DNA of 64,000 nucleotides. Origin: Fibrobacter sp. UWB11. Lineage in GTDB: Bacteria; Fibrobacterota; Fibrobacteria; Fibrobacterales; Fibrobacteraceae. The stretch spans positions 1 to 64,000 of the forward strand of contig NZ_FSRT01000004.1 in assembly GCF_900143015.1 (NCBI RefSeq), written 5' to 3'. Below, piece by piece: positions 4,365 through 59,418 of this stretch (positions within the stretch are counted from its first letter, which is position 1; each line of letters opens with the position of its first letter). The notes under the pieces are model-generated. The model did no database searches. It saw only the letters and a program-made list of their open reading frames with translations, and was not told the origin of the DNA. The translations under genes and the position numbers were made by a program.

Positions 4365-4375
4365 ATGCAAACCTC

Positions 4376-4460: not shown

Positions 4461-4470
4461 TTGAAACGAA

Positions 4471-4497: not shown

Positions 4498-4518
4498 GTT
4501 TCAAGTGAAATAATGGGT

Positions 4519-4760: not shown

Positions 4761-4954
4761 CCGCGCGAGAGCGAAGCTAAAAACCAAAAAAATTTTCGAA
4801 AAATCATTTTTTCCTTGCTCGTCGCGGTCTTTTTCCGAAATTTTAAAGAAAATTTATACGAAAAAGTGGTGATTTTTAGCACTTTTTTGGTCAAAAAATG
4901 AATTTGTGTAATAAAAATGTATTCTTTTGAAAAAAATATGCTATATTTCTTACG

Positions 4955-5142
4955 TGAACGTATCAGAGGGGAGCTTTGATCTGTTTGCGAATATGCAAAC
5001 GCAAATCCGCTTTTAAACGAAATAAACATCACGAGACAAGGAACCGTAAATACGGTTTTGGTGTATTTGGAGTTTATTCAAAAAGTCTCTCATTCCAACT
5101 CGTAAATTACTGTCGCCCTCCAATCGAGGGCGACTTCCCGTT
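4955..5142 (+). ncRNA. Possible small RNA or structured leader (speculative)
   Basis: A TATATTT box near 4940 opens a roughly 190-nt stretch with no credible ORF. It contains a hairpin at about 4985-5002 (GTTTGC / GCAAAC), a short one at CCGTAAATACGG, and a closing 9-10 bp GC-rich hairpin near 5113-5135 (GTCGCCCTC / GAGGGCGAC) followed by a weak T tail. Size and layout would suit a stand-alone sRNA. I considered 6S RNA, but the long paired rod was not evident. Low confidence. Confidence 0.3.
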
Positions 5143-5180
5143 TATAGGGTGCTCAATATAGAAGCGGTGCTTGTCTTTCT

Positions 5181-5214
5181 CGTCATTGCGAGGAGCGTAG
5201 CGACGCGGCAATCT
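5181..5214. repeat. Dispersed palindromic element (CGTCATTGCGAGG type)
   Basis: CGTCATTGCGAGGAGCGTAG followed by CGACGCGGCAATCT, an imperfect palindrome of a kind found as dispersed repeats in many bacterial genomes. One copy was noticed here. It lies in the non-coding interval between the sRNA candidate and the tRNA-Glu locus. Confidence 0.6.
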
Positions 5215-5270
5215 CTAATTGAATTTTTGACTGCTGGATAAATAGAGTAGGGAGGGGCTTCTCAGAGAAT

Positions 5271-5314
5271 CTTTTTATGCCCTGTGTCGCGGTTGGCTTG
5301 TGGGTACAAAAAAA
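5271..5314 (-). repeat. tRNA-Glu locus remnant unit, copy A
   Basis: The unit ATGCCCTGTGTCGCGGTTGG with flanking CTTTTT and GGGTACAAAAAAAG is closely matched at 5497-5541 and 5561-5605. Its ends resemble the tRNA-Glu 3' end (CTTTTTATACCC) and anticodon-arm edge (TGTTGCGG) with the T arm missing, so it is read as a decayed tRNA-related unit. It abuts the terminator of the promoter-distal tRNA-Glu. Confidence 0.55.
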
Positions 5315-5334
5315 GCCCAACCTTGCGGTTGAGC
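5308..5334 (-). terminator. Terminator after tRNA-Glu (copy 2)
   Basis: On the minus strand an 8-bp stem GCTCAACC / GGTTGGGC with a 4-nt loop is followed by seven T, starting 6 nt after the tRNA 3' end. Confidence 0.85.
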
Positions 5335-5340
5335 TTTTTA

Positions 5341-5413
5341 TACCCCCAAGCGGTTTCGAACCGCTGTTGCGGGAATGAAAATCCCGAGTCCTGGGCCACT
5401 AGACGATAGGGGC
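5341..5413 (-). tRNA. tRNA-Glu (anticodon UUC), copy 2
   Basis: Read on the minus strand, GCCCCTA pairs with TGGGGGT (two G-U pairs), the D arm contains TCGTCTAG, and the anticodon loop carries TTC. The T loop is TTCGAAA with stem AGCGG / CCGCT, and the discriminator is A. It is identical to the copy at 5635-5707 and lacks encoded CCA. Each copy has its own promoter and terminator. Confidence 0.94.
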
Positions 5414-5429
5414 GTTTTGTGTGGAGACA

Positions 5430-5457
5430 AATATAGGATTTTATAGAATAATGTCAA
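5430..5457 (-). promoter_or_regulatory. Promoter of tRNA-Glu copy 2
   Basis: Minus strand: TTGACA, a 16-nt spacer, then TATATT, ending 16 nt before the tRNA 5' end. The surrounding 40 nt are nearly the same as the promoter of the other copy. Confidence 0.85.
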
Positions 5458-5496
5458 GGGTGGCTGATTAAATTTTTTTTGAGAAGGGGCGTTGAT

Positions 5497-5541
5497 CTTT
5501 TTAAACCCTGTGTTGCGGTTGGCTTGGGAGTACAAAAAAAG
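5497..5541 (-). repeat. tRNA-Glu locus remnant unit, copy B
   Basis: AAACCCTGTGTTGCGGTTGG with the same CTTTTT and GAGTACAAAAAAAG edges as copy A. It lies between the two tRNA-Glu genes. Confidence 0.55.
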
Positions 5542-5561
5542 AACTTGTCTTCCGACAAGTC
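5534..5561 (-). terminator. Orphan terminator hairpin between tRNA-Glu copies
   Basis: Minus strand: 7-bp stem ACTTGTC / GACAAGT, then seven T. No intact gene lies directly before it, so it probably belonged to a lost tRNA copy. Confidence 0.6.
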
Positions 5562-5605
5562 CTTTTTATACCCTGTGTTGCGGTTTGCTCGAGGGTAACG
5601 AAAAA
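5561..5605 (-). repeat. tRNA-Glu locus remnant unit, copy C
   Basis: ATACCCTGTGTTGCGGTTTG with a more diverged right edge (CGAGGGTAACGAAAAAGG). It directly follows the terminator of tRNA-Glu copy 1. Confidence 0.5.
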
Positions 5606-5627
5606 GGCTTGCTAAAAAGCAAGCCTT
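5601..5627 (-). terminator. Terminator after tRNA-Glu (copy 1)
   Basis: Minus strand: 9-bp stem AAGGCTTGC / GCAAGCCTT followed by five T, 8 nt after the tRNA end. Confidence 0.8.
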
Positions 5628-5634
5628 TTCCTTA

Positions 5635-5707
5635 TACCCCCAAGCGGTTTCGAACCGCTGTTGCGGGAATGAAAATCCCGAGTCCTGGGCCACTAGACGA
5701 TAGGGGC
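5635..5707 (-). tRNA. tRNA-Glu (anticodon UUC), copy 1
   Basis: Sequence identical to the copy at 5341-5413 over all 73 nt: the same acceptor, D, anticodon (TTC) and T arms and A discriminator. It lies upstream of copy 2 in the direction of transcription and is preceded by its own promoter. Confidence 0.94.
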
Positions 5708-5723
5708 GTTTTAGTGTGCGCCA

Positions 5724-5751
5724 AATATAGGATTTTGTAGAATTATGTCAA
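5724..5751 (-). promoter_or_regulatory. Promoter of tRNA-Glu copy 1
   Basis: Minus strand: TTGACA, a 16-nt spacer, then TATATT, ending 16 nt before the tRNA. It is divergent from the ABC transporter gene that begins at 5784. Confidence 0.85.
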
Positions 5752-5783
5752 GGGTGTTTGTTTGATTTTTTTATTTTTCTCCC

Positions 5784-7349
5784 GTGATTTTGAAAAAAAG
5801 GCTGAAAAAGAATCTTTGGTGGTGCATTTTGCGCTTTTTGCCTGTGGCGCTCTTGGCGAGTGCTGCTGACGCTGCGTTGCTTTGGGGGATTCGCTCGTTT
5901 ATGGGGATTCTTCAAGGTGAAACCGTATTTTCGCTTGCGCAATGGTTGGCGCTGATGGTCGTTCTTTCAGTGCTCCGTTTTGTGTTTTTCCTCTTGAAAA
6001 TGAATGTTTCTGAAAAATGGCTTTTCGGAACAGGCGCTTATGTAATGGCTTGGTTCTTGCGGACTCTTCGGTCGCTTTCGCCGCGAGTGTTCCATACGCC
6101 GGAGGGGGATGCTAAGGTTGAGGCTGCTTATGAATCGACTCTAGTGTTGCAGTCCAATGGAGGTGTGTTTTTCCAAGCTGTTCAGGCCGTACTCCAATTG
6201 CTTGTGTTTTTGCCGGTTTTGCTCTATATCTCCTGGCCGCTTACGTTGTTCCTCTTTGTTGTCGTTGTACCTCTTGTGAGCTGGATGCAACGATGCTTGC
6301 ATAAGATGGGACCTGCAGAAGAAGGTGTTTTGACGGAACGCTCGAATTTTCGTGGCTCGCTTTATCTTGCTCGTAAAATTTTCCATCGTTGGAGTTCTCG
6401 GTTCGAACGTAAGGAAGTTTCAAATAATCTGGTAAATCAGTTGCGTGATCTTCGGGATGATGGCCTAGAAGTATCGTTCCGTAAGGGAACTTTATCGCTG
6501 GTGATGGAATCGGTATCGGTTCTCGCGATGATTTTTGTGCTTGCCTTCTGTGCGCTTTTGATTTCGGAAGGCTGGATGGATGGGACGGGGCTTGTTTTGT
6601 TCTGCTCGGCCGTCCTCCTTTGTTATAAACCTGTGAAAGAATGTGCACGTGTGATGCCGCAGGCTCGTTCGGCGATGAGTGCGCTTCATGTTTTGGAAAG
6701 TTTCGAAGCGTTGCCTTCGAAAAAATCGGATTCTAGTTCGGTGAATTTCTGCTGCTCGCCAGATACCGAAAATTTGGAAATTGTCCATGGCGATTTTTCG
6801 TACGAAGGTGCTTTTGAAACACTGTTCAGCAATTTCTCTCTCTGCTGGAATACGAAAAAGCCTGTACTTGTACGTGGTCGCAATGGTGTGGGTAAATCGA
6901 CGTTGTTGCGCTTGCTTGCTGGCCTAGAAGACTGGGATCATGGTAAAATTACTTGTTCTTTGCCTTTCAAAAATAATGTATTCTTTGTTGCGCAGGACTT
7001 GGAATTGCCTCCGCTTCACTTGTTGAAAAAACTTCTTGCACAAACAAATTCTGTTGCGGTTGTCGAATTTGCCCGTGCTGCCCGTGTTGATAAGATTATA
7101 GATAAAGAAGGAATGTCGGGCGGTGAACGTGCTCGTGTTGCTTTGGCCTGGGCACTTGCTTCTGATTGTGCTATGGTCTTGCTTGATGAACCTTTTGCGT
7201 CAGTTGCACTTGTAGACCGCGAACCTCTTTTGACGGCATTCCTCGATACGGCGGAACTTTTGCATAAATGGGTTGTCCTTGTAAGTCACGATGTTTTGAC
7301 TCGTGAATTAGAACAACGTTTTGAAATCGTGGAGATGGATCATGCCTAG
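5784..7349 (+). CDS. ABC transporter, fused membrane and ATPase domains
   Basis: 521 residues with a GTG start. The N-terminal 300 residues hold about five hydrophobic segments (near 13-40, 52-72, 132-165, 242-262, 268-282). The C-terminal ATPase has Walker A GRNGVGKST (about 365-373), a Q-loop AQD, signature MSGGE (444-448), Walker B MVLLDEP and the H-loop VSHD. It is somewhat shorter than typical MsbA-like half-exporters (about 580). It starts an apparent operon with a membrane methyltransferase, waaA and ispH, joined by short overlaps, so a role in lipid or LPS export is possible but unproven. No Shine-Dalgarno sequence is seen. A second possible start is the TTG two codons later. Confidence 0.88.
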   Translation: MILKKRLKKNLWWCILRFLPVALLASAADAALLWGIRSFMGILQGETVFSLAQWLALMVVLSVLRFVFFLLKMNVSEKWLFGTGAYVMAWFLRTLRSLSPRVFHTPEGDAKVEAAYESTLVLQSNGGVFFQAVQAVLQLLVFLPVLLYISWPLTLFLFVVVVPLVSWMQRCLHKMGPAEEGVLTERSNFRGSLYLARKIFHRWSSRFERKEVSNNLVNQLRDLRDDGLEVSFRKGTLSLVMESVSVLAMIFVLAFCALLISEGWMDGTGLVLFCSAVLLCYKPVKECARVMPQARSAMSALHVLESFEALPSKKSDSSSVNFCCSPDTENLEIVHGDFSYEGAFETLFSNFSLCWNTKKPVLVRGRNGVGKSTLLRLLAGLEDWDHGKITCSLPFKNNVFFVAQDLELPPLHLLKKLLAQTNSVAVVEFARAARVDKIIDKEGMSGGERARVALAWALASDCAMVLLDEPFASVALVDREPLLTAFLDTAELLHKWVVLVSHDVLTRELEQRFEIVEMDHA

Positions 7350-7980
7350 TGCAAAGCATGCTGTTTCAACGTTTATGTATCGTTTTCGCGGATATATTTT
7401 GGGGGTGATTGCTATTGCTTTGGTATGTGCCCCTCCGAGTTTTTTTTCGGAACAATTCTGTATAAATGATTGTATCGTGGGCGTTTTTGTTGCGTCCCTG
7501 CTATATGTGGCAAGTGCTCTATTGCGTGTTCGGAGTCGGCAGTTTATTGGCGAACATACTCGCGGTTACGTTCATGATGCAGATGCTCTGGTGACTTGCG
7601 GCCCTTATGCTTGGGTCAGGCATCCGCTTTATATATCCAATACCGGCTTTGCTCTTGGTGTTGCGTTTTTTCATTTGGGCGCATCGCTTTGGACTGTTCC
7701 GTTCATGGTTGTCGTTATTGCGTTTGAAGTTTTTCTTTCTCGAATTGAAGACCGTTTTTTGGAACAGAAATTTGGCGATGTGTGGCGTGCTTGGGCATTG
7801 AAAACCCCTGCGATGTTGCCTCGCTTGAGTGTTTCGCGTGCTTTTTCTTGTGATTCAGTGCACGTTCCTCCGCAAAGAACCTTTTGGCAGGCTTTTTTTG
7901 CGGATTCCTCTACTTGGTTGTGGCTTTTGTTTTGTAATTTGTTACTTGTATTGAGAAAATTGGCGGCTTTCTATGTTTAA
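7342..7980 (+). CDS. Membrane isoprenylcysteine/phospholipid methyltransferase-like protein
   Basis: 212 residues. The ATG at 7342 overlaps the end of the ABC gene by 8 nt and has GGAGA seven nt upstream, which decides the start. There are several membrane spans (about 10-30, 45-62, 100-130, 190-208). The motif CGPYAWVRHPLYISN is the signature of the ICMT/PEMT/NnrU-like membrane methyltransferase fold, in which the Arg-His-Pro loop helps bind S-adenosylmethionine. The substrate cannot be told from sequence. The setting between an ABC exporter and waaA suggests a lipid or cell-envelope substrate. The last 50 residues extend past the usual family core. Confidence 0.75.
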   Translation: MPSAKHAVSTFMYRFRGYILGVIAIALVCAPPSFFSEQFCINDCIVGVFVASLLYVASALLRVRSRQFIGEHTRGYVHDADALVTCGPYAWVRHPLYISNTGFALGVAFFHLGASLWTVPFMVVVIAFEVFLSRIEDRFLEQKFGDVWRAWALKTPAMLPRLSVSRAFSCDSVHVPPQRTFWQAFFADSSTWLWLLFCNLLLVLRKLAAFYV

Positions 7981-9151
7981 GGTAATGGACATTGCGCGTG
8001 AAGCTTTAGGGTCTGTAGCTAAAGTTGCAGCCAAGGTTCCTGTTATAGAAAACAAGTACCATGTGAAAGACCGCTTGCGTGGCCCGTGGCCTAAAGGTCC
8101 GTTCCTTTGGATGCATGGTGCAAGCCTAGGCGAATGTAAGATGCTTCTGAATGTGGCGAAGTATCTCAAGGAAGATTTGCCGAATTGTCCGCGTCTTTTG
8201 GTGACGACGCAAAAAGTCGAAGTGCTTTCGTATATCAAGGAATCGGGTGCTGATGTTGCGGCGTGTATAGCGCCTGCAGATACGCCTACGACGATGAAAT
8301 ACTTTATTTCGTCTGTGAAACCGCTTGGACTTATCCTTGCCGAAAATGAACTTTGGCCCGGTTATCTCTCTTCGATGTTGCAAATTTCGATGCGCCCTTC
8401 CGTGGCCGTTATTTCGGGTCGTTTCCATAGGGCGATTCCTGGAATGGACTATTCGGCGATTGGCTTTGCGAGTATGCAAACCGGATCTGACCTTTCGCGC
8501 TTTTTTAGCGTCTCTGCGCGTGCGAACAATTCGCGCATGATGATTGGCGGTGACTGGAAACTTTTGCCGTGGGTGCGCTCTGGCGAAAACGTTTCGGCTC
8601 CTGAAAATCCGACTGTCGATACATCGTTTATCTCGATGCATATTCAGGAATGGGCAAGCGTTTACCGCATGATTGAATCGTCAATTAAGCGTCAGGAAGC
8701 GGTGGTGCTTGTACCGCGTCGTCTTTCTGAAGTGGCCGATTTTCGCAAGTCGTTGTTGAATCAGGAAATTATCGTTGTTGACTGGCCTAAAGTGCAAAAG
8801 GGAGCCGTATCCATCGTTTCGCAGTTTGGCGTGACGAAAGATGTTTTTGCGGTTTCTAAGTCAGCTGTTGTGGGCGGCTCATTTGCGCGTGGCCTTGGAG
8901 TCCATGATTTTTGGGAACCTCTCCAACGGGGCGTTGCCACTTGCGTGGGGCCGTATGCAGAAGGGCAAAAGGAAACGGTCGCGACACTTGTTCGTGAAGG
9001 CATTATAGCTCAGTTGCAATCGACGGATGGATTCTCTCAACGGAATAAGCCCGATGTTCGCTTGGTACAGACTTTTCTTGCTCACGAAAGTGCGAAAATT
9101 AGCGACTCGTACCAGCAATTGATTGAATTTTTGAAAAATTTGTTAAAGTAA
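7973..9151 (+). CDS. waaA: 3-deoxy-D-manno-octulosonic acid (Kdo) transferase
   Basis: 392 residues, GT-B fold. It transfers Kdo from CMP-Kdo to lipid A precursor at the inner face of the inner membrane. Visible marks are HGASLGE (48-54), whose Glu matches the catalytic base region of WaaA, then ILAENELWP, and near the C-terminus VVGGSFARGLGVHDFWEPL, the CMP-Kdo-binding part with the conserved G-H-EP pattern. The N-terminus begins with an amphipathic stretch rather than the clear membrane anchor of E. coli WaaA. It overlaps the preceding methyltransferase by 8 nt. An alternative ATG lies at 7985. ispH follows after 12 nt, so the genes are likely cotranscribed. Confidence 0.93.
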   Translation: MFKVMDIAREALGSVAKVAAKVPVIENKYHVKDRLRGPWPKGPFLWMHGASLGECKMLLNVAKYLKEDLPNCPRLLVTTQKVEVLSYIKESGADVAACIAPADTPTTMKYFISSVKPLGLILAENELWPGYLSSMLQISMRPSVAVISGRFHRAIPGMDYSAIGFASMQTGSDLSRFFSVSARANNSRMMIGGDWKLLPWVRSGENVSAPENPTVDTSFISMHIQEWASVYRMIESSIKRQEAVVLVPRRLSEVADFRKSLLNQEIIVVDWPKVQKGAVSIVSQFGVTKDVFAVSKSAVVGGSFARGLGVHDFWEPLQRGVATCVGPYAEGQKETVATLVREGIIAQLQSTDGFSQRNKPDVRLVQTFLAHESAKISDSYQQLIEFLKNLLK

Positions 9152-48380: not shown

Positions 48381-51300
48381 ATGGATAGAAACACAATGAA
48401 GAACACAATTAAATCCTTAAAACTATGGGTATTGGGCTGTGCTATGCTCATTGCAGGTGTGCAAAGTGCATCGGCAACATTGACCGGGTGTGAGGGAACC
48501 GTTTATCTAAAGCTTCCTGATGGATGGACTGCCGCTTATTCCGCTGCTGGTGGTCAGTTTGTTGCTTTTTCGAAGAGCACTAAGTATACCGGCTGGTATG
48601 AAATTAGCACTGCTAAAATCGGTGGTACAAACGGAGCGACTGATTTCTACATCTCGAAGGCTTTGAATGACTATGGCCAGACGGGTGGTATTACTCCGAC
48701 TCAGATTGGTGCCAATGTTCAATTTGCTAATGGCAAGGGCTTCTCTTGCGCCGATTTTGGCTCAAAGACGAATGAACTTTGGATCCAACAGGATTTCACG
48801 GATCCGACCAAGCCTTATGTCAAGGGAGATCCTCCAGACGTAAAGTATTTCTACGTGTTCTTGCCGGATGACAAGGTTTGGAAGAGCTCTGTGCCGATGA
48901 TTAGCGAAAACGGCAAAGATAAAGAAATGGATATCGATGCCGATAACTGCGGTTGGTATTACAGACGTTATGTCGATGAAGCCCTTCCGACGGAAGTCTT
49001 CATCCATAGAGATGATGACGAAACGTTGCAGTATGCCATCGGTATGCAAGGTGAAGGTGCTGAAACGCTTGAAAAGATTGACTTGGACGGTTTGTTTAAT
49101 GGTGTTTTCAATAGCGAACCGGGCTATAGTGGCGCATTGTTCTTTGTTGCTGACCAGAAGAAGGCTGCTGAACTTCCCAGCATAATGTCTGGGTGGTATG
49201 TTGAAAGACCGGCTATCAATGGTAGCTGCTCCTATAACCTTGCAGCTCGTATTTATGACTCCGATGCTAAGTTGCATCCGGCATTCTCTTGCTATAGTGG
49301 TCCTGGTGATGGCCCGGCTAATGACGGTTGCCAGAAAGTAGACCAAACGAATGCTGCTGCTGGTGCAAATCCGACTGTCGCTCTTAATGCTATTTATGAC
49401 TGTATCGGTGTGACTCCGGGCATTGTGGAATCGACTCTTGACCGCGCCACTAAGAAGCCGAAGCTCACGGCTGCTGGTAAAAAGTGCTTTATTGATGAGA
49501 AGTATTTCAACATGCTTTTCAATTACACTCCTGGTGTGAACGAAGTGACTTGCTTTGATATGCCGTTTACCCGTGCTGACGATGGCAAGTGGGAATTTGA
49601 CTCTGACTTCTATACAAGCCCTGGTCTTGAAACCCCTGTTCAGGGTGGTTTCTACCCGGTTGAAGCTACCGATGAAAAGAAACTCAAGGATGCTGACTCT
49701 ACGCAGCAAGCTGCTCCGTTAGCTCGTACAAAGCGTACTGCAGAAGGTCCTGTGTTCTATGGTCCGAATCTTCGTGAACTTCACCCGACTGAAAAGATTC
49801 CGATGATTGACGTGATTTGCAATGGCCCGGGTTGGAAGGGCGGTCATAAGTGCGATGGTCTCTTCGCTGATGGCGATGGCACCGAAGCCTTCTATACTGG
49901 CCTTAGCCCGGCTAACACTGGTGCTTGCGTCTTTGGTTGGAGCTGCCCGGATAAGGCTCCTGCAAATTGGGCATTCTTTGTGGATGGAACTGAAACTTCT
50001 GCTGCTTCGGGTAGCCCGCGTTGGAAGTCCGAAGAAGGCGGTAAGGGCAATGCCGGTCGTAACCAGCATTTCTGCTTCGAATCCCATGCTGAATTCCGCT
50101 TCAAGAAGGGACTCAAGTTCAGCTTCCGTGGTGACGATGACATTTGGGTTTATATTGATAACAAGCTTGCTGTGGACCTTGGTGGTACTCACCTCGCTGC
50201 TCCGGGCTATGTGGACTTGGATACGTTTATGCCCAATGGCAAGGCTGATTCCACCTATGATATCGATATCTTCTTCTGCGACCGTCGTACTACGATGAGT
50301 AACGTCCGTATCAAGACGAACATGTTCATTGAACAGACCGTGGGTATTAAGGCCGAAGGTCACCAGAATAGCAATGAAGACTATAGGCTGACTGGTGGTA
50401 ACAACAAGTTCAAGCTGAAGTATTCTCAGTCTGGTGGTGGTAGCTGCGCTGCTGCAAGAGGTACTGCAGTCGTGTTGGAAGGCAAACAGATTACGGATGC
50501 AGGCTATAAGATTACTTATACGCTCACCACTGATAAGAGTGGTTCTGACCCGACCAAGACGATTATTTCTGCAGAAGAATTCGAAGCTAATCCGGTTCAG
50601 TTAGATGGCATCATCGATGTCACAGAACCGGGTGAACCGATGATTAACGAAATCAAGTTGAAGAAGAGACTTACTCCGGATACGTACTATCTGCGCATTA
50701 CGATTGGTACTGATGTCTATATTATGTCCTGGGAAATTAAGGGTAGCGTTGCTGTTGCTAACCGTGATGCCGTTATTGTTGACGCAACTGGTTACAAGAG
50801 CCCGGTGATGCCGTTCAAGAGTTCTGCAATGGCTACAAATGCAGCCGATGTTACGGTTGACCAGCTTATCCCGCTCTACATTGCTCCGATTACGGATCCG
50901 TGTGGTGGTACACCTTCTGCTACTTGCACCCAGCCGGTCCAGTTGAGCGCTGCTGTTGGTTCTGAATATTCCTTGGATGTTAAGGACGCTGCAGGCAATG
51001 CTTCTACTCTGGTTACCTTCTACAAGTTGGAAAACGGACAACTTTCAATGGTTGACCCGGTCAAGTACAATCGTAAGATTGGTGCCGGTGGTGTTGATAC
51101 CCTTTATGCAACTATCCCGTTCAACCAGTTCACGACATCTCAAAATGAGACTGTGGTCATCAGTGTAAAGGATAGTCCTTATAAGGCTACGCTCTCGTTC
51201 TTCGTGCCGACGATTGCGTTCGTTGAATCTGAAACGTCTTTGACTGTTAAGACTTCGGAACCGGATAACGTAACTCACTTGAAGTCCGAAGAAGTTGACT

Positions 51301-53081
51301 TCTACTTGATCGCTCTTGACCCGACTAAGAATAACTCTCCGTGCGGTGATGCTTGCAACTTTAAGGTGACTGCTGGTTCTGAACTCTCTAAGGGCTTGGA
51401 AATCCTTTATGGTCCTGATTCCACCGTTCACGTTGTGAATGGTCGTGCAACGGTTACCGTCAAGTCTTCTATGGTTTATGAATTGCCGACTTCTTCTGCA
51501 ACTCTCCATGTGAAGGGCCCGAGTGCTACTATGATGCAGGCTAAGGTTGTCAACTTGCAGTTTATTGAACCGCCGGTTCCGACACCGCTCTTGGCCGATA
51601 TCTTCGACGTCCATGGCGAACTTCCGGCTTCTTCGATGAACATCCCGGCTGAATACTTCAGCATGCAGACGGAATACCTCGATGGTATTGGTGACTCCCT
51701 TGCTATTTACTACTACCGTCCGTTTATCAACCACGAAGACTCCCTCCCGAATAAGATTGCAGTCTTCTGGGATGAAGATGAAAAGGATTCTGTGGTCTTT
51801 GAAAAGGCTGAAATTAAGGCTGGTACTGTTTGCGGTGCTGCTGCATCTCTGCCTGATTCTCTCTGCTTGCCGCGAATCACTCTCGGTGGCAAGAAACTCT
51901 CCAAGAATGTGAAGACCTCTGGTAAGGGTAAGCTCAAGTCTTGGGCTACTTACACGGCTCGCGGTACTGTTGTGACGAACTTCTACTCTTGCGCAATTTA
52001 TGACCGCATTGCCCCGATCATCGTCTCTGCAAGAGCTATGACCGAAACTATGGGCGGTGTTGACTTGGCTAAGCTCAAGATCGAATTCTCTGAACCTGTT
52101 CAGAAAACGACCGAAGGCGATGCTAAGGGTGATGCAGTTCTTTCCTTCTACATTAACAATGGAAAGCAGCCGCAGTTTACCGAATATATACCGCTGAACC
52201 CGGGTTCTTCGATTCCGCCTTCTACGAACTCGAACACCATGAATTTGCTTTACAGCGCAAATGGCTTGTTCCCGCAGTCTGGTGACTATATCCACTTCGG
52301 TAGCATTGCAGGTGTGGGCCTCTTTACGGACCAGTCTGACTATGCAACTTATCCTGGTGGCGATACTCTCCGTCCGGCTGATGATGCTACTTATGGTTGG
52401 AACATTGCTCCGGGCTATAATGCAAGTGGACGTCTCCCGTCTCCGTGGGTATTGATCTCTGGTGATGTGAGTGCCTACGCTGTCAGAATCATTCCGTCCG
52501 CAATGGGTGGCATTCCGAGAACTCCGGCTGAAGCCGCTAACCTTGATGCGTTCGACATCTTTACCTACGACGCAAACAAGGATGACGACAACTTCAGAGC
52601 AGACATCCTTGCTGGTCAGGGCGAATTTGAAAAGTATGGCTTTATTCCGCATGGCTGGTATGTCAAGACCGATATGGGTGCCATGATCGAATCCAAGGAA
52701 GATTTTGTCAACTCCAACAAGAAGAACGTGTTCTTTGATTACGAACTCAGTTTCTTCACGAACTTGGGCTCTCATGTGGCAACAAAGAAGGGCCGCATCT
52801 TCTGCGATGACGACAAGAACTTTGAAGTCAACCAGAAGTACTACTTCGGTGGTGCAGGTCACAACTGCGTTGAAACCCGTAGGAACTTCTACATCGTGTG
52901 GAACATGAAGTCCGACAAGAACCGCCTCGTTGGTTCTGGCGCCTTCATCACCAAGCTCAAGACTTACGTCCAGCTTGATAACCACGGTAAGAAGAACAAG
53001 TTCGACAAGACCGAAATGTGGGGCGTCCGCCATAACGCTAAGACGATTGGCAGCTTCCCGGTCTACAAGGCCAATCCGTAA
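48381..53081 (+). CDS. Fibro-slime domain surface protein
   Basis: 1566 residues. Signal peptide near 1-33 (ending SASA). The fibro-slime domain (about 500-650) shows FFVDGTE, FSFRGDDDIWVYIDNKLAVD, and a Cys-rich CDRRTTMSN; it is PA14-related and known from Fibrobacter and Dictyostelium, where such proteins serve in adhesion to cellulose. N-terminal part unlike known families. C-terminal 700 residues are beta-rich, with Ig-like repeats (for example RIAPIIVSARAMTETMGG). No clear sorting tail. It carries many Cys for an envelope protein. The 340-nt upstream interval (48039-48380) shows a hairpin TCAAG / CTTGA near 48333 but no confident promoter. Well-biased codon use implies high expression. 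Confidence 0.9.
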   Translation: MDRNTMKNTIKSLKLWVLGCAMLIAGVQSASATLTGCEGTVYLKLPDGWTAAYSAAGGQFVAFSKSTKYTGWYEISTAKIGGTNGATDFYISKALNDYGQTGGITPTQIGANVQFANGKGFSCADFGSKTNELWIQQDFTDPTKPYVKGDPPDVKYFYVFLPDDKVWKSSVPMISENGKDKEMDIDADNCGWYYRRYVDEALPTEVFIHRDDDETLQYAIGMQGEGAETLEKIDLDGLFNGVFNSEPGYSGALFFVADQKKAAELPSIMSGWYVERPAINGSCSYNLAARIYDSDAKLHPAFSCYSGPGDGPANDGCQKVDQTNAAAGANPTVALNAIYDCIGVTPGIVESTLDRATKKPKLTAAGKKCFIDEKYFNMLFNYTPGVNEVTCFDMPFTRADDGKWEFDSDFYTSPGLETPVQGGFYPVEATDEKKLKDADSTQQAAPLARTKRTAEGPVFYGPNLRELHPTEKIPMIDVICNGPGWKGGHKCDGLFADGDGTEAFYTGLSPANTGACVFGWSCPDKAPANWAFFVDGTETSAASGSPRWKSEEGGKGNAGRNQHFCFESHAEFRFKKGLKFSFRGDDDIWVYIDNKLAVDLGGTHLAAPGYVDLDTFMPNGKADSTYDIDIFFCDRRTTMSNVRIKTNMFIEQTVGIKAEGHQNSNEDYRLTGGNNKFKLKYSQSGGGSCAAARGTAVVLEGKQITDAGYKITYTLTTDKSGSDPTKTIISAEEFEANPVQLDGIIDVTEPGEPMINEIKLKKRLTPDTYYLRITIGTDVYIMSWEIKGSVAVANRDAVIVDATGYKSPVMPFKSSAMATNAADVTVDQLIPLYIAPITDPCGGTPSATCTQPVQLSAAVGSEYSLDVKDAAGNASTLVTFYKLENGQLSMVDPVKYNRKIGAGGVDTLYATIPFNQFTTSQNETVVISVKDSPYKATLSFFVPTIAFVESETSLTVKTSEPDNVTHLKSEEVDFYLIALDPTKNNSPCGDACNFKVTAGSELSKGLEILYGPDSTVHVVNGRATVTVKSSMVYELPTSSATLHVKGPSATMMQAKVVNLQFIEPPVPTPLLADIFDVHGELPASSMNIPAEYFSMQTEYLDGIGDSLAIYYYRPFINHEDSLPNKIAVFWDEDEKDSVVFEKAEIKAGTVCGAAASLPDSLCLPRITLGGKKLSKNVKTSGKGKLKSWATYTARGTVVTNFYSCAIYDRIAPIIVSARAMTETMGGVDLAKLKIEFSEPVQKTTEGDAKGDAVLSFYINNGKQPQFTEYIPLNPGSSIPPSTNSNTMNLLYSANGLFPQSGDYIHFGSIAGVGLFTDQSDYATYPGGDTLRPADDATYGWNIAPGYNASGRLPSPWVLISGDVSAYAVRIIPSAMGGIPRTPAEAANLDAFDIFTYDANKDDDNFRADILAGQGEFEKYGFIPHGWYVKTDMGAMIESKEDFVNSNKKNVFFDYELSFFTNLGSHVATKKGRIFCDDDKNFEVNQKYYFGGAGHNCVETRRNFYIVWNMKSDKNRLVGSGAFITKLKTYVQLDNHGKKNKFDKTEMWGVRHNAKTIGSFPVYKANP

Positions 53082-53142: not shown

Positions 53143-53544
53143 ATGCGAAAGTTTATAATTGCAGCTTCTTTATGCGCTATGGCTTGGGCCGGATCGCCAA
53201 CTGATATGGACTCTCTTTTCCGCGGAAACGAGTACAAGCCGACGCTTAGTGCATCGCTCCGCGATACGACAAGCAATTCTGCAGTACCTGCCAAGGTCTC
53301 TGGCAAGAATGACAAGGGTGATGGGTTCTACATGCTCCAGTTCGAAGCTGTAGGCGATTTTGACGCCGCTCAGAGGCGCAAGGCTCAGCTCTCCGCTAGC
53401 ACCGGCTATACCATCCAGGTCGTGTTCGATACACCGTTCTACAAGCTTCGCGGCGGTGGATGGAACAAACGCAAGGTCGCTGAGGACAAGGCTCGCGAAC
53501 TCTCCGCGTACAATATCAACGCCTTTGTTGTAAAGATCCGATAA
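53143..53544 (+). CDS. Secreted SPOR-like domain protein
   Basis: 133 residues with signal peptide (cleavage near AWAG), a short low-complexity part, and a C-terminal SPOR-type beta-alpha-beta fold of about 70 residues (YMLQFEAVGDFDAAQRRKAQ and the GWNKRKVAEDKARELSAY helix). SPOR domains bind denuded glycan strands at the division septum. RlpA in this window has no SPOR domain, so the two could act together, but they lie 23 kb apart. TATATT ends 7 nt before the ATG, with no ribosome site. Confidence 0.8.
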   Translation: MRKFIIAASLCAMAWAGSPTDMDSLFRGNEYKPTLSASLRDTTSNSAVPAKVSGKNDKGDGFYMLQFEAVGDFDAAQRRKAQLSASTGYTIQVVFDTPFYKLRGGGWNKRKVAEDKARELSAYNINAFVVKIR

Positions 53545-53570: not shown

Positions 53571-53602
53571 AAGAGCAGGCTAGGCCTGCTCTTGTTGTTT
53601 TT
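53571..53602. terminator. Terminator between SPOR gene and helicase-like gene
   Basis: A perfect 10-bp stem AAGAGCAGGC / GCCTGCTCTT with loop TAG, followed by GTTGTTTTTT. Confidence 0.85.
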
Positions 53603-53627: not shown

Positions 53628-56600
53628 CTACAGCACGCCAAGAATCTGCTTGATGCTGTGGTCGTCTAGCTTTAACAGCGCACGTTCCTCTGGGGGCACG
53701 TAAGCCATCTTGCGCTCGTTGTCGGGCCTCTTGGTGCGGTCTCGGAGCACTATCGCTTTGTTCTTGAGCGAGTAGAAGAATGGGCCTGTCTTGACAAATT
53801 GCTTTTGGTGCAGCGCTTGCTTGATGGCATCGCTTAATACGGCAGTAATCTTGGGTGTCGCGTGTTCAACGTTGTGCAATTCCAGAAGTCTCTGCAACAA
53901 TAATTCTCCATGGATCGGGGATTCGCTATCGACATAGAACTTTAGCTGTTCGATAAGCTTGTCCACCGGGAGCTCTTGAATGGGCAAATCGTCTCCGGAG
54001 CCTTCCTTTGCAAAGTGGACCACATTGTAAGGCTCGGCTTGAATATCGCTGTTCTGTTCCGCATCGTCAATAGAAAGGTCTTCTTGCGGTGGCGGTGCGA
54101 CGCTCTGTTCAATTGCAATGGTGGCAATCAGATTTTCTTTTTCGTCTGCGTTCGAAATGTTCCAGAGCGGAAGCCACATGGGGAGGACCTTCCAGCCGAG
54201 TCTCGTAAATGCATTCGGACGAGTGTATTCGCGATCTTCAATCGACTCGTTGTATAGTCCGTAGCTGCAATCGCTTTCGATTACCGCAAGGAAACGCTTG
54301 GAATTGTTGGCGTCAACGATGACCGGCCCCACCGGTATGTTGCATGGGGCTATGTAGTCCTTAAATGCAATGGATTCTGCCTTGAGAACTTCTTTAATTT
54401 GTTTGCTGAACGGTGTGTCGATGACGTTGGTGGTGCCCGTTGCATTTTCGCTTGTGGACTTACTCTTGAGCGAAACAACCCATTCTTGGAATAGACCTTC
54501 TTTTTCTGTTAACTTGTCTGATTCTTCGTTGTTCAAGAACAGGCAAAGGCTCTGCTTTGCAAGTGTGGAGCCTATGGCGAGTTTGCGGCTTTCTGTAGCA
54601 TTCGAAACATCGTCGATGTCTACGCAAACCAGAATTTCGTCACGGTATAAATCTACAGCGCGTTCAATGGTTTTGATGTAGAACTTGTTTTGCAGAGTTC
54701 CTTGAGTAAAGAACTTGGCAACGTTGGGATTCTTTTCTAAATGATTTTGTAGTGCGACTTCGATTTCTTTGCAAAGAGCCTGGCTAGAAGCTACAATTCC
54801 AAGTGTTTGGCTCGGATTCTTTGTCGCATGTTGGATAGCCTTTTCTGCAATGGCCGAAATCTTGTCGTGAACGACTTTTACGGTCTGAGACTTGCCTGTT
54901 GTAATCGTTGAATTCGGGAATTGCGCAATTTCGTTGTTGTAAATTTTGTTATTTGCAAAACGGAACAACGCCGGGTTTGCGTATTGCATTGTATAACTGA
55001 TAACGCGTGTAGGAATTCCCTTGCGAAGCGCTGCAGAAAGCACGTTGTCTTTAAAGAAAATCGATTGTGAAGAAACTTCCATATTGCAGGCGTCCATGGG
55101 GAGCGCCTCAAGCGTTGGCTCGCAGGGGTTTCCAAATAGAATGACTTTCTTGGAATTGAAAATTCCTGGCATGGCTTCGGCTATCGTCATGCAATCGGCA
55201 TCCAATAGCAATGCGACATCAAATGATTCAAAGTCTGGATGGTATGATTGTGATAAAGTAACGATTTGCAATCGGGCGGGATTTTTTTCGACCGTTTCGT
55301 GCATGGCACGGAAGTTTGCGTTCGAGAATTGGTCTAGCAATGTTCTGTATTGCTTGCCCTGTTGCTTGCGGTTCTTCGAAGACGGACTGAACAATTCCGG
55401 ACATTCTGCGGTAGCCGCTTGCATTTGGCTGTTTGTCCATGAACGGGCAAATGCCATTGCAACGTCTTTACTAGCGTTCTTGGAATCCTTTACGAATTGC
55501 GCAAGATTTTCACATGGCGAATCGTTGATGTTTTCGATGTGCTCGCAAATCTGCAAGTAAACGTCTTGCTTGTCCCACTGGGTGGACCAACGCTCGATTT
55601 TATCTGTCCACAAATCAATATTTTGCGATTCCAAGGATTCGCTTAAATTGAGCGATTTGCTGATGCTCTGGAGCGCCTTTAGCAGTTCTTCGACGCTAGC
55701 CTGGATTTTGTCTAAATTCTCGGCAAACGGTTTGAACAAGTGCCATTTTGCAAGCAACTGCATCAGATAATCATGCTGGTCGCTGTTCTTGATTCGTGCG
55801 CGGAACACGTAGTAATGGCGGATCTTGTTTGCTAAATCATTCCAGTCGGTCTTTTCGTATTTCCAGTCTTTACCGAACAGACGCGTGGCAAGTACAGAGG
55901 AATCTTTGTACTTGCGTCTGTATTCTTGCATTTCGATAAGCTTGTCGATTTGCTCGATAAGCATGTCATCGGAGGTAATGCTCTTTGGGTTCTTGAAAAC
56001 GCTAAGCAAAATGCGCTTGGGTCTGCGGTAGTGATCCGAGAGCGACTTGAGTGCGGAATTGAGACTATCGTAAAATTCGTTGCGGGCTGCAACAATGTTT
56101 ACGTCAATGGCATCTTCCAAAAAGATGTCGGAGCCCTTGCGGCGATAACTAGACCAACGGGCGCCTGCACTTGGCAAATCGTTGAGGTCATCTTGGTAGG
56201 CTATCCATCCGTTTGAATGGAGATTCCAGTCTTCAAGGCCCGGCATATCCTTGTCGAAATTTTTCTTGAAGACATTTATCAAAGTAAGAATGTCCGAAAG
56301 ATTGAATCCATCGAGATAGAGCTTAGATTTGACGACGCTCTCGATGAATGGCTTGATGGTCTCGATTAAGTCTTTTGCTCGAGAAAGCTCTTCGCCAATC
56401 AAATTTTTGCGTTCTTTCGAAACAGCCGGCAACGTTATTCCTTGGAATGCGTTGTAGACTTCTATTCCGTTTTGTTCAAAAAATAGCTGAGTCATTTCTT
56501 CAAGGCTTGAATGTATTGCCTTGAATTTGTCATAACGGACATCTGCAATGTTCTTGAATAAGTCACTTGCGAATTTTGACTTGACGTTTTTTAATTTTGT

Positions 56601-57716
56601 AATTTCGTCGAGCAATTCCGTGAGTGTTGCACCGCAGGGTTTGAGCGGAAAGTTGACGGAATCGTAGTACGTGACGAGTTTTGCACGGAGCTCGCTCAAC
56701 GTGCTTTTAATCGTATCACGGTCGGGACCTTGAAACGATCGGAATGGCGGCTTCCAGGCGTTTTCAAAGTTAAACTTAGTGATGGCCCTACGGCTAATCA
56801 CACAGACTTTTTTCTTTTGCTGGATGAGCTCTGCGGTTATGTTTACAGCGGCTTTAGCCTTTTCTGCTCCTGGGAGCGTTTGGATGGCATAAGCTGAATA
56901 TTTTTCATCTAGTGCATCGATGACAGCCTTGTTTGTTTGCGAATCCGTAATGTATGGAAAATAGTGTTCCGCTGGATTGAAAACGTGGTCGTAAGGTTCT
57001 TCGTCAAAGAGCGATGGCTGCGGCAAGAATCCTTCGTTTCCGATAGTCGCAATGAAAAATTCGTTATTGGCTGCTTTTGCGGTTGTCCAGCACTCGCTTG
57101 TGAGTTTCTTTTTGAGAAGAATTTTGTTTGTGCTGTAAAACGTGATGCAATAGCCGTTGCGTGTAAACTTCCAATCTGTTTTAGCTGCAATCTTTTTTTC
57201 GAGCGTGTCGAAAAATTTTTGGATGTTGAACGTCTTGTTCTTGTAGAAATCCGAGGCTATTGGGAACTTGATGTTTTTATCGAGCGATTGGAGCGCGATA
57301 TTTTCGATAGGTGCACAATCTGAAATGGTTAATGTATCGTGCTCGGTATCGTAGGTAAGCGGGATAAGGATTGCTGGGGCGAGCATCTTTTCGCCGCACT
57401 TGATAAATCCCGTTGCCATGTACAGGTCTTGGTTGCAAAAGTCTTCGACTTTTGATTTTAGAATTTTACGGAAAGTCTCGAGATCTGCTGTTTGCCTTTC
57501 TTCGTTATATTTGGCAGAAACAGGGAAAAAATGCGCGAGAGTGCGAGGCTTGGATTCATTTTGCCAAGTCTCAAAAAATAGGTCTCCGTTGTCTAACAGC
57601 AGCGGGGATTGAAACTTGTTTTTTTGCGAGAAGCTGAGGAGTCGGTCTTTGGTTTCAAAGGCTGCTGCTTCTTCGCGAATTCTTTCTATGGTAGTAGACA
57701 CAGACGTTGATGCCAT
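53628..57716 (-). CDS. Giant DUF4011/DUF3320-type protein with eroded SF1 helicase and Vsr-like nuclease region
   Basis: 1362 residues. The N-terminus recalls DUF4011 (RLLSFSQKNKFQSPLLL). At about 281-290 stands TLPGAEKAKA where an SF1 helicase has GPPGTGKS, and the expected DEAS of Walker B is DADC, so both ATP motifs have decayed. Near 1129-1190 is a MTES_1575/Vsr-like nuclease region (LAVIESDCSYGLYN, then RLGWKVLPMWLPLW). The last 95 residues resemble DUF3320 (LLQRLLELHNVEHATPKI). Such giant proteins are often found near phage-defence genes. TATATT ends 6 nt before the ATG. It is a single gene. Whether it works as an ATP-independent nuclease, a decoy or is failing is unknown. Confidence 0.7.
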   Translation of the reverse strand: MASTSVSTTIERIREEAAAFETKDRLLSFSQKNKFQSPLLLDNGDLFFETWQNESKPRTLAHFFPVSAKYNEERQTADLETFRKILKSKVEDFCNQDLYMATGFIKCGEKMLAPAILIPLTYDTEHDTLTISDCAPIENIALQSLDKNIKFPIASDFYKNKTFNIQKFFDTLEKKIAAKTDWKFTRNGYCITFYSTNKILLKKKLTSECWTTAKAANNEFFIATIGNEGFLPQPSLFDEEPYDHVFNPAEHYFPYITDSQTNKAVIDALDEKYSAYAIQTLPGAEKAKAAVNITAELIQQKKKVCVISRRAITKFNFENAWKPPFRSFQGPDRDTIKSTLSELRAKLVTYYDSVNFPLKPCGATLTELLDEITKLKNVKSKFASDLFKNIADVRYDKFKAIHSSLEEMTQLFFEQNGIEVYNAFQGITLPAVSKERKNLIGEELSRAKDLIETIKPFIESVVKSKLYLDGFNLSDILTLINVFKKNFDKDMPGLEDWNLHSNGWIAYQDDLNDLPSAGARWSSYRRKGSDIFLEDAIDVNIVAARNEFYDSLNSALKSLSDHYRRPKRILLSVFKNPKSITSDDMLIEQIDKLIEMQEYRRKYKDSSVLATRLFGKDWKYEKTDWNDLANKIRHYYVFRARIKNSDQHDYLMQLLAKWHLFKPFAENLDKIQASVEELLKALQSISKSLNLSESLESQNIDLWTDKIERWSTQWDKQDVYLQICEHIENINDSPCENLAQFVKDSKNASKDVAMAFARSWTNSQMQAATAECPELFSPSSKNRKQQGKQYRTLLDQFSNANFRAMHETVEKNPARLQIVTLSQSYHPDFESFDVALLLDADCMTIAEAMPGIFNSKKVILFGNPCEPTLEALPMDACNMEVSSQSIFFKDNVLSAALRKGIPTRVISYTMQYANPALFRFANNKIYNNEIAQFPNSTITTGKSQTVKVVHDKISAIAEKAIQHATKNPSQTLGIVASSQALCKEIEVALQNHLEKNPNVAKFFTQGTLQNKFYIKTIERAVDLYRDEILVCVDIDDVSNATESRKLAIGSTLAKQSLCLFLNNEESDKLTEKEGLFQEWVVSLKSKSTSENATGTTNVIDTPFSKQIKEVLKAESIAFKDYIAPCNIPVGPVIVDANNSKRFLAVIESDCSYGLYNESIEDREYTRPNAFTRLGWKVLPMWLPLWNISNADEKENLIATIAIEQSVAPPPQEDLSIDDAEQNSDIQAEPYNVVHFAKEGSGDDLPIQELPVDKLIEQLKFYVDSESPIHGELLLQRLLELHNVEHATPKITAVLSDAIKQALHQKQFVKTGPFFYSLKNKAIVLRDRTKRPDNERKMAYVPPEERALLKLDDHSIKQILGVL

Positions 57717-57795: not shown

Positions 57796-58665
57796 TTACA
57801 GGGGTGGGAGCGTGTTTGCGACGAGTGTGATGGCGTCTTGTAGCGAAAGGGGGGCATTGTTTTGGGTGAGATGCGCCTTGAAGCAGACTCGTCCGAAAAG
57901 CATTTCGGGAGTAATGCCGGCCTCTTTGTCTTGCCTTAAACTGTGTGCGAGCTCACGCTTGGAAAGTTTTTTATTGTTGGCATCGACGATTAAGGGGTGG
58001 TGTAGGTAAATGGGGCGGTCTGTGCGTCCAAGGGCTTCCATTAAGGCGATTTGTCGAGCTGTAGAATTGCGGATGTCTTCGCCTCTCACGATATGCGTGA
58101 TGTTTTCGTCGATATCATCGACACAGACTGCAAATTGGTATGTCCATTGGTTGTCCCTATCGCGGATAGGGAAGTCACCACATTGAAGTTTCGGATTTTC
58201 ATGAAAGTCTCCCAAACGGAGATCGTGCCAGTCGATAACTTTATTTGGAACGATAAAGCGCAAATTGTGCGGAAGGGGGAGGCTGTGCGGTTCGTGCAAG
58301 CATTTTCCTTGATAAACGATTTCGCCTGTTTCGCTTTGCGGATTATCGGCAAGGAGTTGTTTGCGACTGCAATAGCACGGGTAAACTAACGATTTTTCTT
58401 CGAGCTTTTGGAGTGCTACATTATAAACATCATTTCGTGCGCTCTGAATACTTTCTGAATCATGCTTGAATCCCAACCAAGCTAAATCTTCACGGATTCC
58501 TTCGATGTAGGCGGGGCGCGCACGACTTTGATCGTGATCTTCTATTCTTAAGTGGATCTTTAAGTTCCATTTTTTTGCAGCAGCCCACACATAAAGTGCC
58601 GAAAGTAGATGGCCTTCGTGGAGATAGCCCGTGGGGCTTGGTGCGAATCGAATTTTTCCTGACAT
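57796..58665 (-). CDS. gluQ: Glutamyl-Q tRNA(Asp) synthetase
   Basis: 289 residues, a truncated class I synthetase catalytic domain. It glutamylates the queuosine of tRNA-Asp, not the 3' end. Marks: APSPTGYLHEGHL (HIGH variant), a zinc site CYC ... YxxxC, and KLSKR for KMSKS. No anticodon-binding domain is present, as expected. ATG 58665 is taken in preference to a GTG six codons upstream. It is a single gene on its strand. Confidence 0.93.
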   Translation of the reverse strand: MSGKIRFAPSPTGYLHEGHLLSALYVWAAAKKWNLKIHLRIEDHDQSRARPAYIEGIREDLAWLGFKHDSESIQSARNDVYNVALQKLEEKSLVYPCYCSRKQLLADNPQSETGEIVYQGKCLHEPHSLPLPHNLRFIVPNKVIDWHDLRLGDFHENPKLQCGDFPIRDRDNQWTYQFAVCVDDIDENITHIVRGEDIRNSTARQIALMEALGRTDRPIYLHHPLIVDANNKKLSKRELAHSLRQDKEAGITPEMLFGRVCFKAHLTQNNAPLSLQDAITLVANTLPPL

Positions 58666-58830
58666 ATTGCTTTTGTATGACACATCACAAATATAAGTTG
58701 TAAAATTGTTACTAAAGTCACATATTTTTTATGAAAAAACATAAATATTTTGTTTTTTTCGTAAAAAGCGATTTTGTTATATATATTATTGTCATTAAAG
58801 GGATGTGTATCCTTGGAAGACGGAGTAATT

Positions 58831-59418
58831 ATGGGTGGAATGAGAATTCTTTCGAGAGCCTGTGTGGCTCTTTTCTTTGCTTTTGCAGCAAGTGCATTTG
58901 CAGAAGATGTTGTTGCAATGGCTTCTAACGGCTCGACTGTTATCTTGCATGACAATGGTCGTTGGGAATATCATCAGAACAACAGCAAAATTCGTGATGT
59001 GCGCGAGAGTGCAATTCCCGAAGATGCGAAGTTCAATGTGATTGTCGAATACGAAAAGCCCGAAATGGTGCGTAAGAACGTGCGACTTGCCATGGAGGCT
59101 GCTTTTGCGACTGAAGAAGAAATTCGTGACAGTTTGAGAAATGTACCGAAGGGCGGTTACATTTATTTTCAGGTAAAGACTTCACAAATCAAGAAGGGAA
59201 TGCCTCGCAAGTTGACTTACTCCTTGTTCGATGGCAGCAAGAAACCTATATTTAAGAAAACGGTTTCTGATACCGAAGCGGTCCCGAGCGAACAGAGAGG
59301 AATATCGAATTTGCTCGTCGTTCCTGTGTATGGGCACCCCAAGTCCAACGTTATGTTGGCTCGTGTCGAGGCTCGTGACGGGATGGAGACGCTTGATATC
59401 GATATCCCCATTAGGTAA
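58831..59418 (+). CDS. Secreted periplasmic protein, unknown
   Basis: 195 residues. A hydrophobic signal (about 5-24, ending SAFA), then the motif GSTVILHDNGRWEY, common in small exported proteins of unknown role, and a C-terminal beta-rich domain. GGAG is 8 nt before ATG 58831, which decides the start against several upstream in-frame codons. The exonuclease starts just after. No function can be named. Confidence 0.7.
   Translation: MGGMRILSRACVALFFAFAASAFAEDVVAMASNGSTVILHDNGRWEYHQNNSKIRDVRESAIPEDAKFNVIVEYEKPEMVRKNVRLAMEAAFATEEEIRDSLRNVPKGGYIYFQVKTSQIKKGMPRKLTYSLFDGSKKPIFKKTVSDTEAVPSEQRGISNLLVVPVYGHPKSNVMLARVEARDGMETLDIDIPIR

What the first reader, a model, noticed from the sequence alone, without database searches (positions are those of the whole stretch)
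53628..57716. Helicase-nuclease giant with eroded ATP sites
The protein keeps the layout of DUF4011/SF1 helicase/Vsr-like nuclease/DUF3320 giants, yet both Walker A (TLPGAEKAKA) and Walker B (DADC) have lost key residues. The rest of the 1362 residues shows an unbroken frame and normal codon use, so it is under constraint. It might be a regulator or a nuclease with a new mode of control, possibly in phage defence.
Basis: partly seen in the sequence, partly recalled or inferred. Interest (0 to 1): 0.65.

Follow-up and report, generated by a model that had tools for sequence, protein, structure and literature searches.

The report
Fibrobacter core pseudo-helicase beside gluQ
A giant anti-phage-type DNA helicase/nuclease has been turned, throughout the gut bacterium Fibrobacter and its close relatives, into a permanently kept protein that has lost the key residues of its ATP motor and its nuclease, so it probably now works as a binding scaffold instead of an enzyme.

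Summary
The ORF (minus strand, 53628-57716, 1362 aa) is intact and full-length homologous to DUF4011/SF1-helicase/Vsr/DUF3320 giants (profile-profile E 1.9e-50). In 52 distinct relatives, Walker A Gly and Walker B Asp are never canonical. Neither are the motif III Gln, motif VI Arg and the nuclease's first catalytic Asp. The Walker A Ser/Thr is Ser in 2 of 52. Nine giants outside this family, four from the same genus, keep the Walker A motif, and the genus four keep all of them bar details.

The protein is strongly constrained: dN/dS is about 0.03-0.16 in the seven closest pairs. It occurs in 78 of 80 Fibrobacter genomes and six neighbouring genera. It sits at a fixed locus just downstream of a GluQRS-like gene in 67 of 69 genomes examined. 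It is not in phage records and not in a defence island. AlphaFold2 still predicts a UPF1-like two-RecA core, a Vsr-fold domain and a winged helix.

Best reading: a ProA/Hhe-type anti-phage helicase-nuclease exapted once into a core pseudo-enzyme, probably an ATP-independent nucleic-acid-binding scaffold. The exaptation and erosion are well supported. The mechanism and partner are inference. Phage defence is not supported.

The parts
53628..57716 (-). Pseudo-helicase/pseudo-nuclease gene, 1362 aa
   Evidence: ORF; full-length homology to intact giants, E 1.9e-50; dN/dS 0.03-0.16 in the seven closest pairs
57117..57716 (-). N-terminal DUF4011-like region (residues 1-200)
   Evidence: Pfam PF13195: window E 0.048, below cut-off; many family members over the cut-off, best 45.9 bits
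56727..56969 (-). First half of RecA-like domain 1 (residues 250-330)
   Evidence: Alignment; AlphaFold2 model matches UPF1/Ighmbp2 core, Z about 19
56850..56879 (-). Eroded Walker A, TLPGAEKAKA (residues 280-289); Gly to Glu, Lys kept here, Ser to Ala
   Evidence: Gly 0/52, Lys 40/52, Ser 2/52 and Thr 0/52 in the family; GK[ST] intact in 9/9 relatives outside the family
55281..56726 (-). Large all-helical insert (residues 331-812)
   Evidence: Model secondary structure; covers the strongest PADLOC PDC-S37 stretch, residues 332-813
55041..55280 (-). Second half of RecA-like domain 1 (residues 813-892)
55191..55205 (-). Eroded Walker B, LDADC (residues 838-842); ungapped alignment gives Asp to Leu838 and Glu to Asp839
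   Evidence: canonical Asp 0/52; Asp839 52/52; alignment
54522..55040 (-). RecA-like domain 2 (residues 893-1065) with eroded motifs IV-VI; motif VI Arg replaced by Leu or His
54102..54425 (-). Vsr/MTES_1575-fold pseudo-nuclease domain (residues 1098-1205)
   Evidence: C-terminal model matches I-Bth0305I Z 10.6 and Vsr Z 9.2; Pfam PF18741 matches 30/30 members, window below cut-off
53763..53996 (-). DUF3320 winged-helix domain (residues 1241-1318)
   Evidence: Pfam PF11784 matches 24/30 members; winged-helix matches, Z about 7
53631..53762 (-). Conserved basic C-terminal tail, RDR..RP..ERK..YV.PEER (residues 1319-1362)
   Evidence: Invariant columns; pI 9.7
57796..58683 (-). GluQRS-like gene directly upstream, same strand
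   Evidence: Best NCBIfam model TIGR03838, 240.9 bits against a cut-off of 276.7; directly upstream in 67 of 69 genomes
53143..53544 (+). Convergent SPOR-domain gene, the usual downstream neighbour
   Evidence: Pfam PF05036; homologue in 17 of 19 loci compared

Best explanation
A ProA/Hhe-type (DUF4011-SF1 helicase-Vsr-DUF3320) anti-phage giant was acquired once, in the ancestor of Fibrobacter and its closest sister genera, at a locus next to a GluQRS-like gene. It lost helicase and nuclease catalytic residues before those genera split and has since been kept as a core gene under purifying selection. It most likely works as an ATP-independent scaffold: the UPF1-like two-RecA cleft, the helical insert, the Vsr-fold domain and the C-terminal winged helix are kept as nucleic-acid and/or protein binding surfaces, as in the pseudohelicase Utp25 or in RecC. 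Shown: homology to the giants, predicted fold, loss of catalytic residues, constraint, fixed locus. Inferred: the single acquisition (from distribution), loss of activity, nucleic-acid binding, partner and pathway.
For: Full-length homology to intact giants, one of which scores 1240 bits for NCBIfam ProA and 1407 for PADLOC PDC-S37. Catalytic positions are not canonical in 52/52 or nearly so, against intact relatives. dN/dS is 0.03-0.16 in the seven closest pairs, with median 0.05-0.11 in every region. Distribution is 78/80 genus genomes plus six genera, forming one clade in rpoB (g22 could not be placed, since no rpoB was found). GluQRS-like adjacency 67/69. Predicted UPF1-like core and Vsr fold retained. 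Precedent for a retained dead helicase: Utp25 (PMC9539457).
Against: No biochemical data. The Walker Lys is kept in 40 of 52, and Asp839, Asp841 (Asp or Glu), Arg1025-Asp1026, Glu1147 and Asp1149 are invariant, so an altered NTP- or metal-binding site is not excluded. The protein as a whole is acidic, pI 5.9, which argues mildly against general DNA binding; RecA1a, RecA2 and the tail are basic.
Confidence: 0.55

Rival explanations
1. A translation- or tRNA-linked factor working with the GluQRS-like enzyme: the dead helicase core and Vsr-fold domain bind tRNA or another RNA, and the two genes form one operon.
For: Adjacent, same strand, short gaps (median 35 nt) in six genera. The genera g15, g17 and g21, which lack one, also lack the other. 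The closest helicase folds include the RNA helicases UPF1 and Ighmbp2.
Against: The two genes separate: G160 keeps the pseudo-helicase without a GluQRS-like gene, while G165 and G095 keep that gene without the pseudo-helicase. Linkage by shared descent is enough to explain adjacency. A promoter-like site lies between the two genes in the window, but such sites are at the chance rate in the region.
Confidence: 0.15
2. A rewired but still active enzyme: catalytic residues have migrated (Asp839/Asp841, Arg1025-Asp1026; Asp1135, Glu1147, Asp1149, Glu1160, Asp1161), leaving NTP binding or nuclease activity.
For: These acids are invariant or nearly so over 52 proteins. Residue migration is known in PD-(D/E)XK enzymes (general knowledge).
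Against: The phosphate-binding Gly, the Walker B Asp, the motif III Gln and the motif VI Arg are all gone (0/52 each), and the Walker A Ser/Thr is Ser in only 2/52. The Walker Lys is Trp, Ala, Gly, Leu, Arg or Asn in 12 of 52. Loss of all of these together fits inactivation better than rewiring.
Confidence: 0.15
3. Still an anti-phage protein, for example a sensor or regulator of active giants.
For: Closest named families are the anti-phage proteins ProA and Hhe and the candidate PDC-S37. Four genus genomes also carry an intact giant of this general type.
Against: Present in nearly every genome at one fixed locus. Flanked by a GluQRS-like gene, an exonuclease, a topoisomerase-like gene and a SPOR gene. 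No match in phage records or in viral contigs. Kept in the many genomes with no intact DUF4011 giant, including the window's own.
Confidence: 0.08
4. A decaying pseudogene or assembly artefact.
For: Catalytic motifs lost; one internal TAG and one split copy among 78.
Against: Intact frames in 74 of 78 genus genomes, dN/dS well below 1 in every region, many invariant residues over 46 diverse rows.
Confidence: 0.02

Closest known systems
ProA (NCBIfam NF058533) / PADLOC PDC-S37 anti-phage giants
   Same: Same domain order, full-length homology over 1266 columns to genus giants of this type; window hits PDC-S37 at E 1e-105 and ProA at E 7e-62
   Different: Window scores 209 bits against a ProA cut-off of 1500; catalytic residues lost; core gene at a fixed locus
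Hhe, DUF4011 domain-containing anti-phage protein (NF042953)
   Same: Homologous helicase and Vsr segments (51 bits; PADLOC Hhe over residues 828-1193)
   Different: Cut-off 2000 bits not met; motifs lost; not in a defence locus
UPF1/Ighmbp2 SF1B helicases
   Same: Predicted two-RecA core, Z 19.4, rmsd 3.1 over 367 residues with Ighmbp2
   Different: ATP-site residues lost; giant helical insert; extra Vsr and winged-helix domains
RecC of RecBCD
   Same: A dead SF1 helicase and nuclease fold used as a scaffold (general knowledge); Chi is recognised in a tunnel in RecC (PMC7644769 abstract)
   Different: RecC does not appear among the rows shown in the fold searches; no RecB or RecD partner known; different domain set
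Utp25 pseudohelicase (PMC9539457)
   Same: Helicase fold kept while the helicase motifs are dispensable
   Different: DEAD-box type, eukaryotic small-subunit processome

Membership tests
DUF4011-SF1-Vsr-DUF3320 giants (ProA / PDC-S37 / Hhe) | Domain order DUF4011, split SF1 helicase with large insert, MTES_1575 REase, DUF3320 | tested here: met
   hhalign 100% probability, E 1.9e-50, residues 9-1361; Pfam matches across the family
DUF4011-SF1-Vsr-DUF3320 giants (ProA / PDC-S37 / Hhe) | Intact SF1 motifs GxxxxGK[ST], DExx, QGxExD, motif VI Arg | tested here: not met
   0/52 for Walker A Gly, Walker B Asp and motif VI Arg; Walker A Ser/Thr 2/52; Walker A intact in 9/9 other giants, all motifs in the four genus giants
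DUF4011-SF1-Vsr-DUF3320 giants (ProA / PDC-S37 / Hhe) | NCBIfam equivalog cut-off for ProA (1500 bits) or Hhe (2000 bits) | tested here: not met
   Window 209 and 51 bits; note that the intact genus giant L037 also stays below, at 1240.7 and 861.6
DUF4011-SF1-Vsr-DUF3320 giants (ProA / PDC-S37 / Hhe) | Patchy occurrence in defence or mobile surroundings | tested here: not met
   78/80 genus genomes, fixed locus
DUF4011-SF1-Vsr-DUF3320 giants (ProA / PDC-S37 / Hhe) | Anti-phage activity | not testable with these tools
   Needs plaque assays
UPF1-like SF1B helicase fold | Two RecA-like domains in UPF1-like arrangement | tested here: met
   AlphaFold2 mean pLDDT 85.2; Z 19.4 to 4b3g, rmsd 3.1 over 367 residues
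Vsr/MTES_1575 restriction-endonuclease-like nuclease | Vsr fold | tested here: met
   Z 10.6 to 3r3p, Z 9.2 to 1cw0; PF18741 over its cut-off in L135, 57.3 bits, below it in the window, 21.3 bits
Vsr/MTES_1575 restriction-endonuclease-like nuclease | Catalytic Asp of the first core strand | tested here: not met
   That column holds Pro, Leu, Phe, Ala or Met in 52/52, never Asp; the pairing rests on the hhalign alignment
Pseudo-enzyme | Catalytic residues lost while the protein stays under purifying selection | tested here: met
Pseudo-enzyme | No catalytic activity | not testable with these tools
   Needs biochemistry
GluQRS (neighbouring gene) | NCBIfam TIGR03838 cut-off 276.7 bits | tested here: not met
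   240.9 bits; still the best-scoring model, above gltX_bact at 206.5; called GluQRS-like here

The most novel reading that the evidence does not exclude
A domesticated anti-phage helicase-nuclease that became a clade-specific housekeeping pseudo-enzyme acting on RNA or tRNA together with the GluQRS-like enzyme, or as a RecC-like scanning scaffold for an active partner: a bacterial defence machine repurposed into a core structural component.
Probability: 0.2. Interest if true: 0.75.

Novelty: new variant of a known kind. Interest (0 to 1): 0.52.

Why it matters
It gives a clear case, placed on a species tree, of a defence-type helicase-nuclease losing the residues of both catalytic centres yet becoming a core gene of a bacterial clade. 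That makes the question of what such giants do besides enzymology directly testable. It also warns that homology to defence models (PADLOC PDC-S37, E 1e-105) could flag this gene as a phage-defence candidate in Fibrobacter genomes, when its catalytic residues are missing and its distribution is that of a core gene.

Tried and rejected
Pseudogene or frameshift artefact: rejected by dN/dS and frame conservation. Intact motifs elsewhere in the protein: none found. Phage origin: no tblastn match in 50,697 phage records and none in viral contigs. Plasmid relatives listed are distant, about 20-23% identity, and those read are intact giants. PDB sequence search gave only SMUBP-2 (Ighmbp2), weakly, for the Walker A region, plus chance-level hits. 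No RecC or AddB chain appears among the 50 rows shown of each fold search; that list cannot exclude the fold. Obligate partnership with the GluQRS-like gene: weakened by G160, G165 and G095. The first rpoB tree took wrong frames for some rows and was rebuilt. In the protein tree genus g24 sits on a long branch near the root, unlike rpoB where it is sister to g1; read as fast evolution of g24, with transfer not excluded. Literature: DUF4011/DUF3320 appears in four papers held, and none was found that describes this family in Fibrobacter.
Full report
What was checked. The ORF lies on the minus strand, 53628-57716, 1362 aa, uninterrupted. Pfam sees only weak MTES_1575, DUF3320 and DUF4011 matches in the window protein and no AAA domain. 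PADLOC gives candidate defence family PDC-S37 at E 1e-105, mainly over residues 332-813, and Hhe at 5e-10. NCBIfam gives anti-phage ProA at 209 bits against a cut-off of 1500. A profile of the family aligned with four giants from the same genus gives one full-length alignment: 100% probability, E 1.9e-50, 1266 columns, residues 9-1361. The claimed layout is therefore right.

How eroded it is. That alignment pairs QGPPGTGKSQTITN with QTLPGAEKAKAAVN, FDTVIFDEAS with FDVALLLDAD, QGDERD with VDLYRD, TRAK with TLAK, and ECDG with ESDC. Over 52 distinct homologues, the Walker A Gly is 0/52, Lys 40/52, Ser 2/52 and Thr 0/52. The Walker B Asp is 0/52, replaced by Leu in 51, and the catalytic Glu position is Asp in 52/52. 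The motif III Gln is 0/52, and the motif VI Arg is 0/52 (Leu 43, His 9). The Walker B pairing is ungapped; a one-residue shift would instead read D-A-D/E for D-E-A, and either way DE is lost. The column paired with the first catalytic Asp of the Vsr-type nuclease is never Asp, while Glu1147 and Asp1149 are invariant. As a control, the four giants of the same genus and five from plasmid records all keep GxxxxGK[ST], and the genus giants keep the helicase motifs. No member of 30 matches a Pfam AAA/helicase model at E 0.01.

It is functional. Pairwise dN/dS (Nei-Gojobori) for the seven closest pairs is 0.03-0.16. The 22 pairs listed run from 0.03 to 0.37, the highest values where dS is about 1. 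Every region is constrained, with medians 0.05-0.11. Seventy-four of 78 genus genomes have a full-length frame with no stop.

Who has it. In the phylum search, 78 of 80 genomes of the genus match; the two without are 65% and 71% complete. Genera g18, g19, g20, g22, g23 and g24 of the same family also have it. Genera g15, g16 and g21, and g17 apart from one weak partial match in G098, do not. In the other families of the phylum the only trace is one weak hit to residues 486-552 (G042). Named records show the genus is Fibrobacter. In an rpoB tree the carriers form one clade with g21 and g17 outside, so one gain and one loss (G165) suffice. Genera g15, g16 and g22 could not be placed in that tree. 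In the protein tree the groupings g23+g19 and g20+g18 agree with rpoB, but g24 sits on a long branch near the root instead of next to g1.

Where it sits. The gene is directly downstream of a GluQRS-like gene on the same strand in 67 of 69 genomes in hand. One of the other two is the split copy G117, where the measured start is displaced; the other is G160, which has lost the GluQRS-like gene. Median gap is 35 nt. In the window the gap is 79 nt and holds a promoter-like match, but such matches are at the chance rate in the region, so co-transcription is possible and unproven. Downstream is a convergent SPOR-domain gene with a stem-loop between. The neighbourhood also holds an RNase T-type exonuclease, a glycoside hydrolase family 3 gene and a topoisomerase-like gene (the last named from its sequence only). 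None looks like a defence gene. Intact relatives on plasmids lie beside DUF262, SIR2 and CRISPR genes. No match was found in phage records or viral contigs. The window genome has no DUF4011 match at E 0.001.

Structure. AlphaFold2 of residues 163-1362 with 46 rows has mean pLDDT 85.2 and pTM 0.64. It matches UPF1-type SF1B helicases, best Ighmbp2 Z 19.4, rmsd 3.1 over 367 residues, with a long helical insert between the halves of RecA domain 1. A separate model of residues 1085-1362 (pLDDT 83.0) holds a Vsr-fold domain (I-Bth0305I Z 10.6; Vsr Z 9.2) and a winged helix. Two large-subunit proteins of the Toxoplasma mitoribosome also match the Vsr domain at Z about 10. They may be RAP-type RNA-binding proteins, which is from memory and only a lead.

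Interpretation. Catalysis is very likely gone from both centres, while fold, many surface and core residues and the frame are kept. The most economical reading is exaptation of a ProA/Hhe-type anti-phage giant into a core pseudo-enzyme scaffold. Precedents are Utp25, a validated pseudohelicase (PMC9539457), and RecC, where Chi is recognised (PMC7644769). A DUF4011 gene has also been reported as a core gene in P. aeruginosa (PMC10250203); whether its motifs are intact was not tested. A tie to tRNA biology through the GluQRS-like gene is attractive, but the genes separate in three genomes, so it is kept as a rival. Activity, ligand and partner are untested.

Noticed in passing
L037 4734-9338, L038 5008-10956, L149 131-5998, L150 3342-7958: Four other Fibrobacter genomes (G033, G006, G132, G150) carry giants of this general type with intact helicase motifs, two of them with a long N-terminal extension.
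   Followed up: partly
L185 (G160) 4092-8129: Genus g20 keeps the pseudo-helicase at the usual locus although its GluQRS-like gene is gone.
   Followed up: partly
L183 (G165) 4630-5652: G165 keeps the GluQRS-like gene, but no pseudo-helicase was found in its assembly.
   Followed up: no
53571-53593: A 10-pair stem-loop lies between the convergent SPOR gene and the pseudo-helicase, a possible bidirectional terminator.
   Followed up: no
48381-53081: Large 1566-aa ORF downstream with a signal-like N-terminus; homologues follow the pseudo-helicase in 14 of 19 loci compared.
   Followed up: no
58774-59418: Conserved 214-aa protein divergent from the GluQRS-like gene with no Pfam match; relatives flank the locus in several other genera, including L185.
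   Followed up: no
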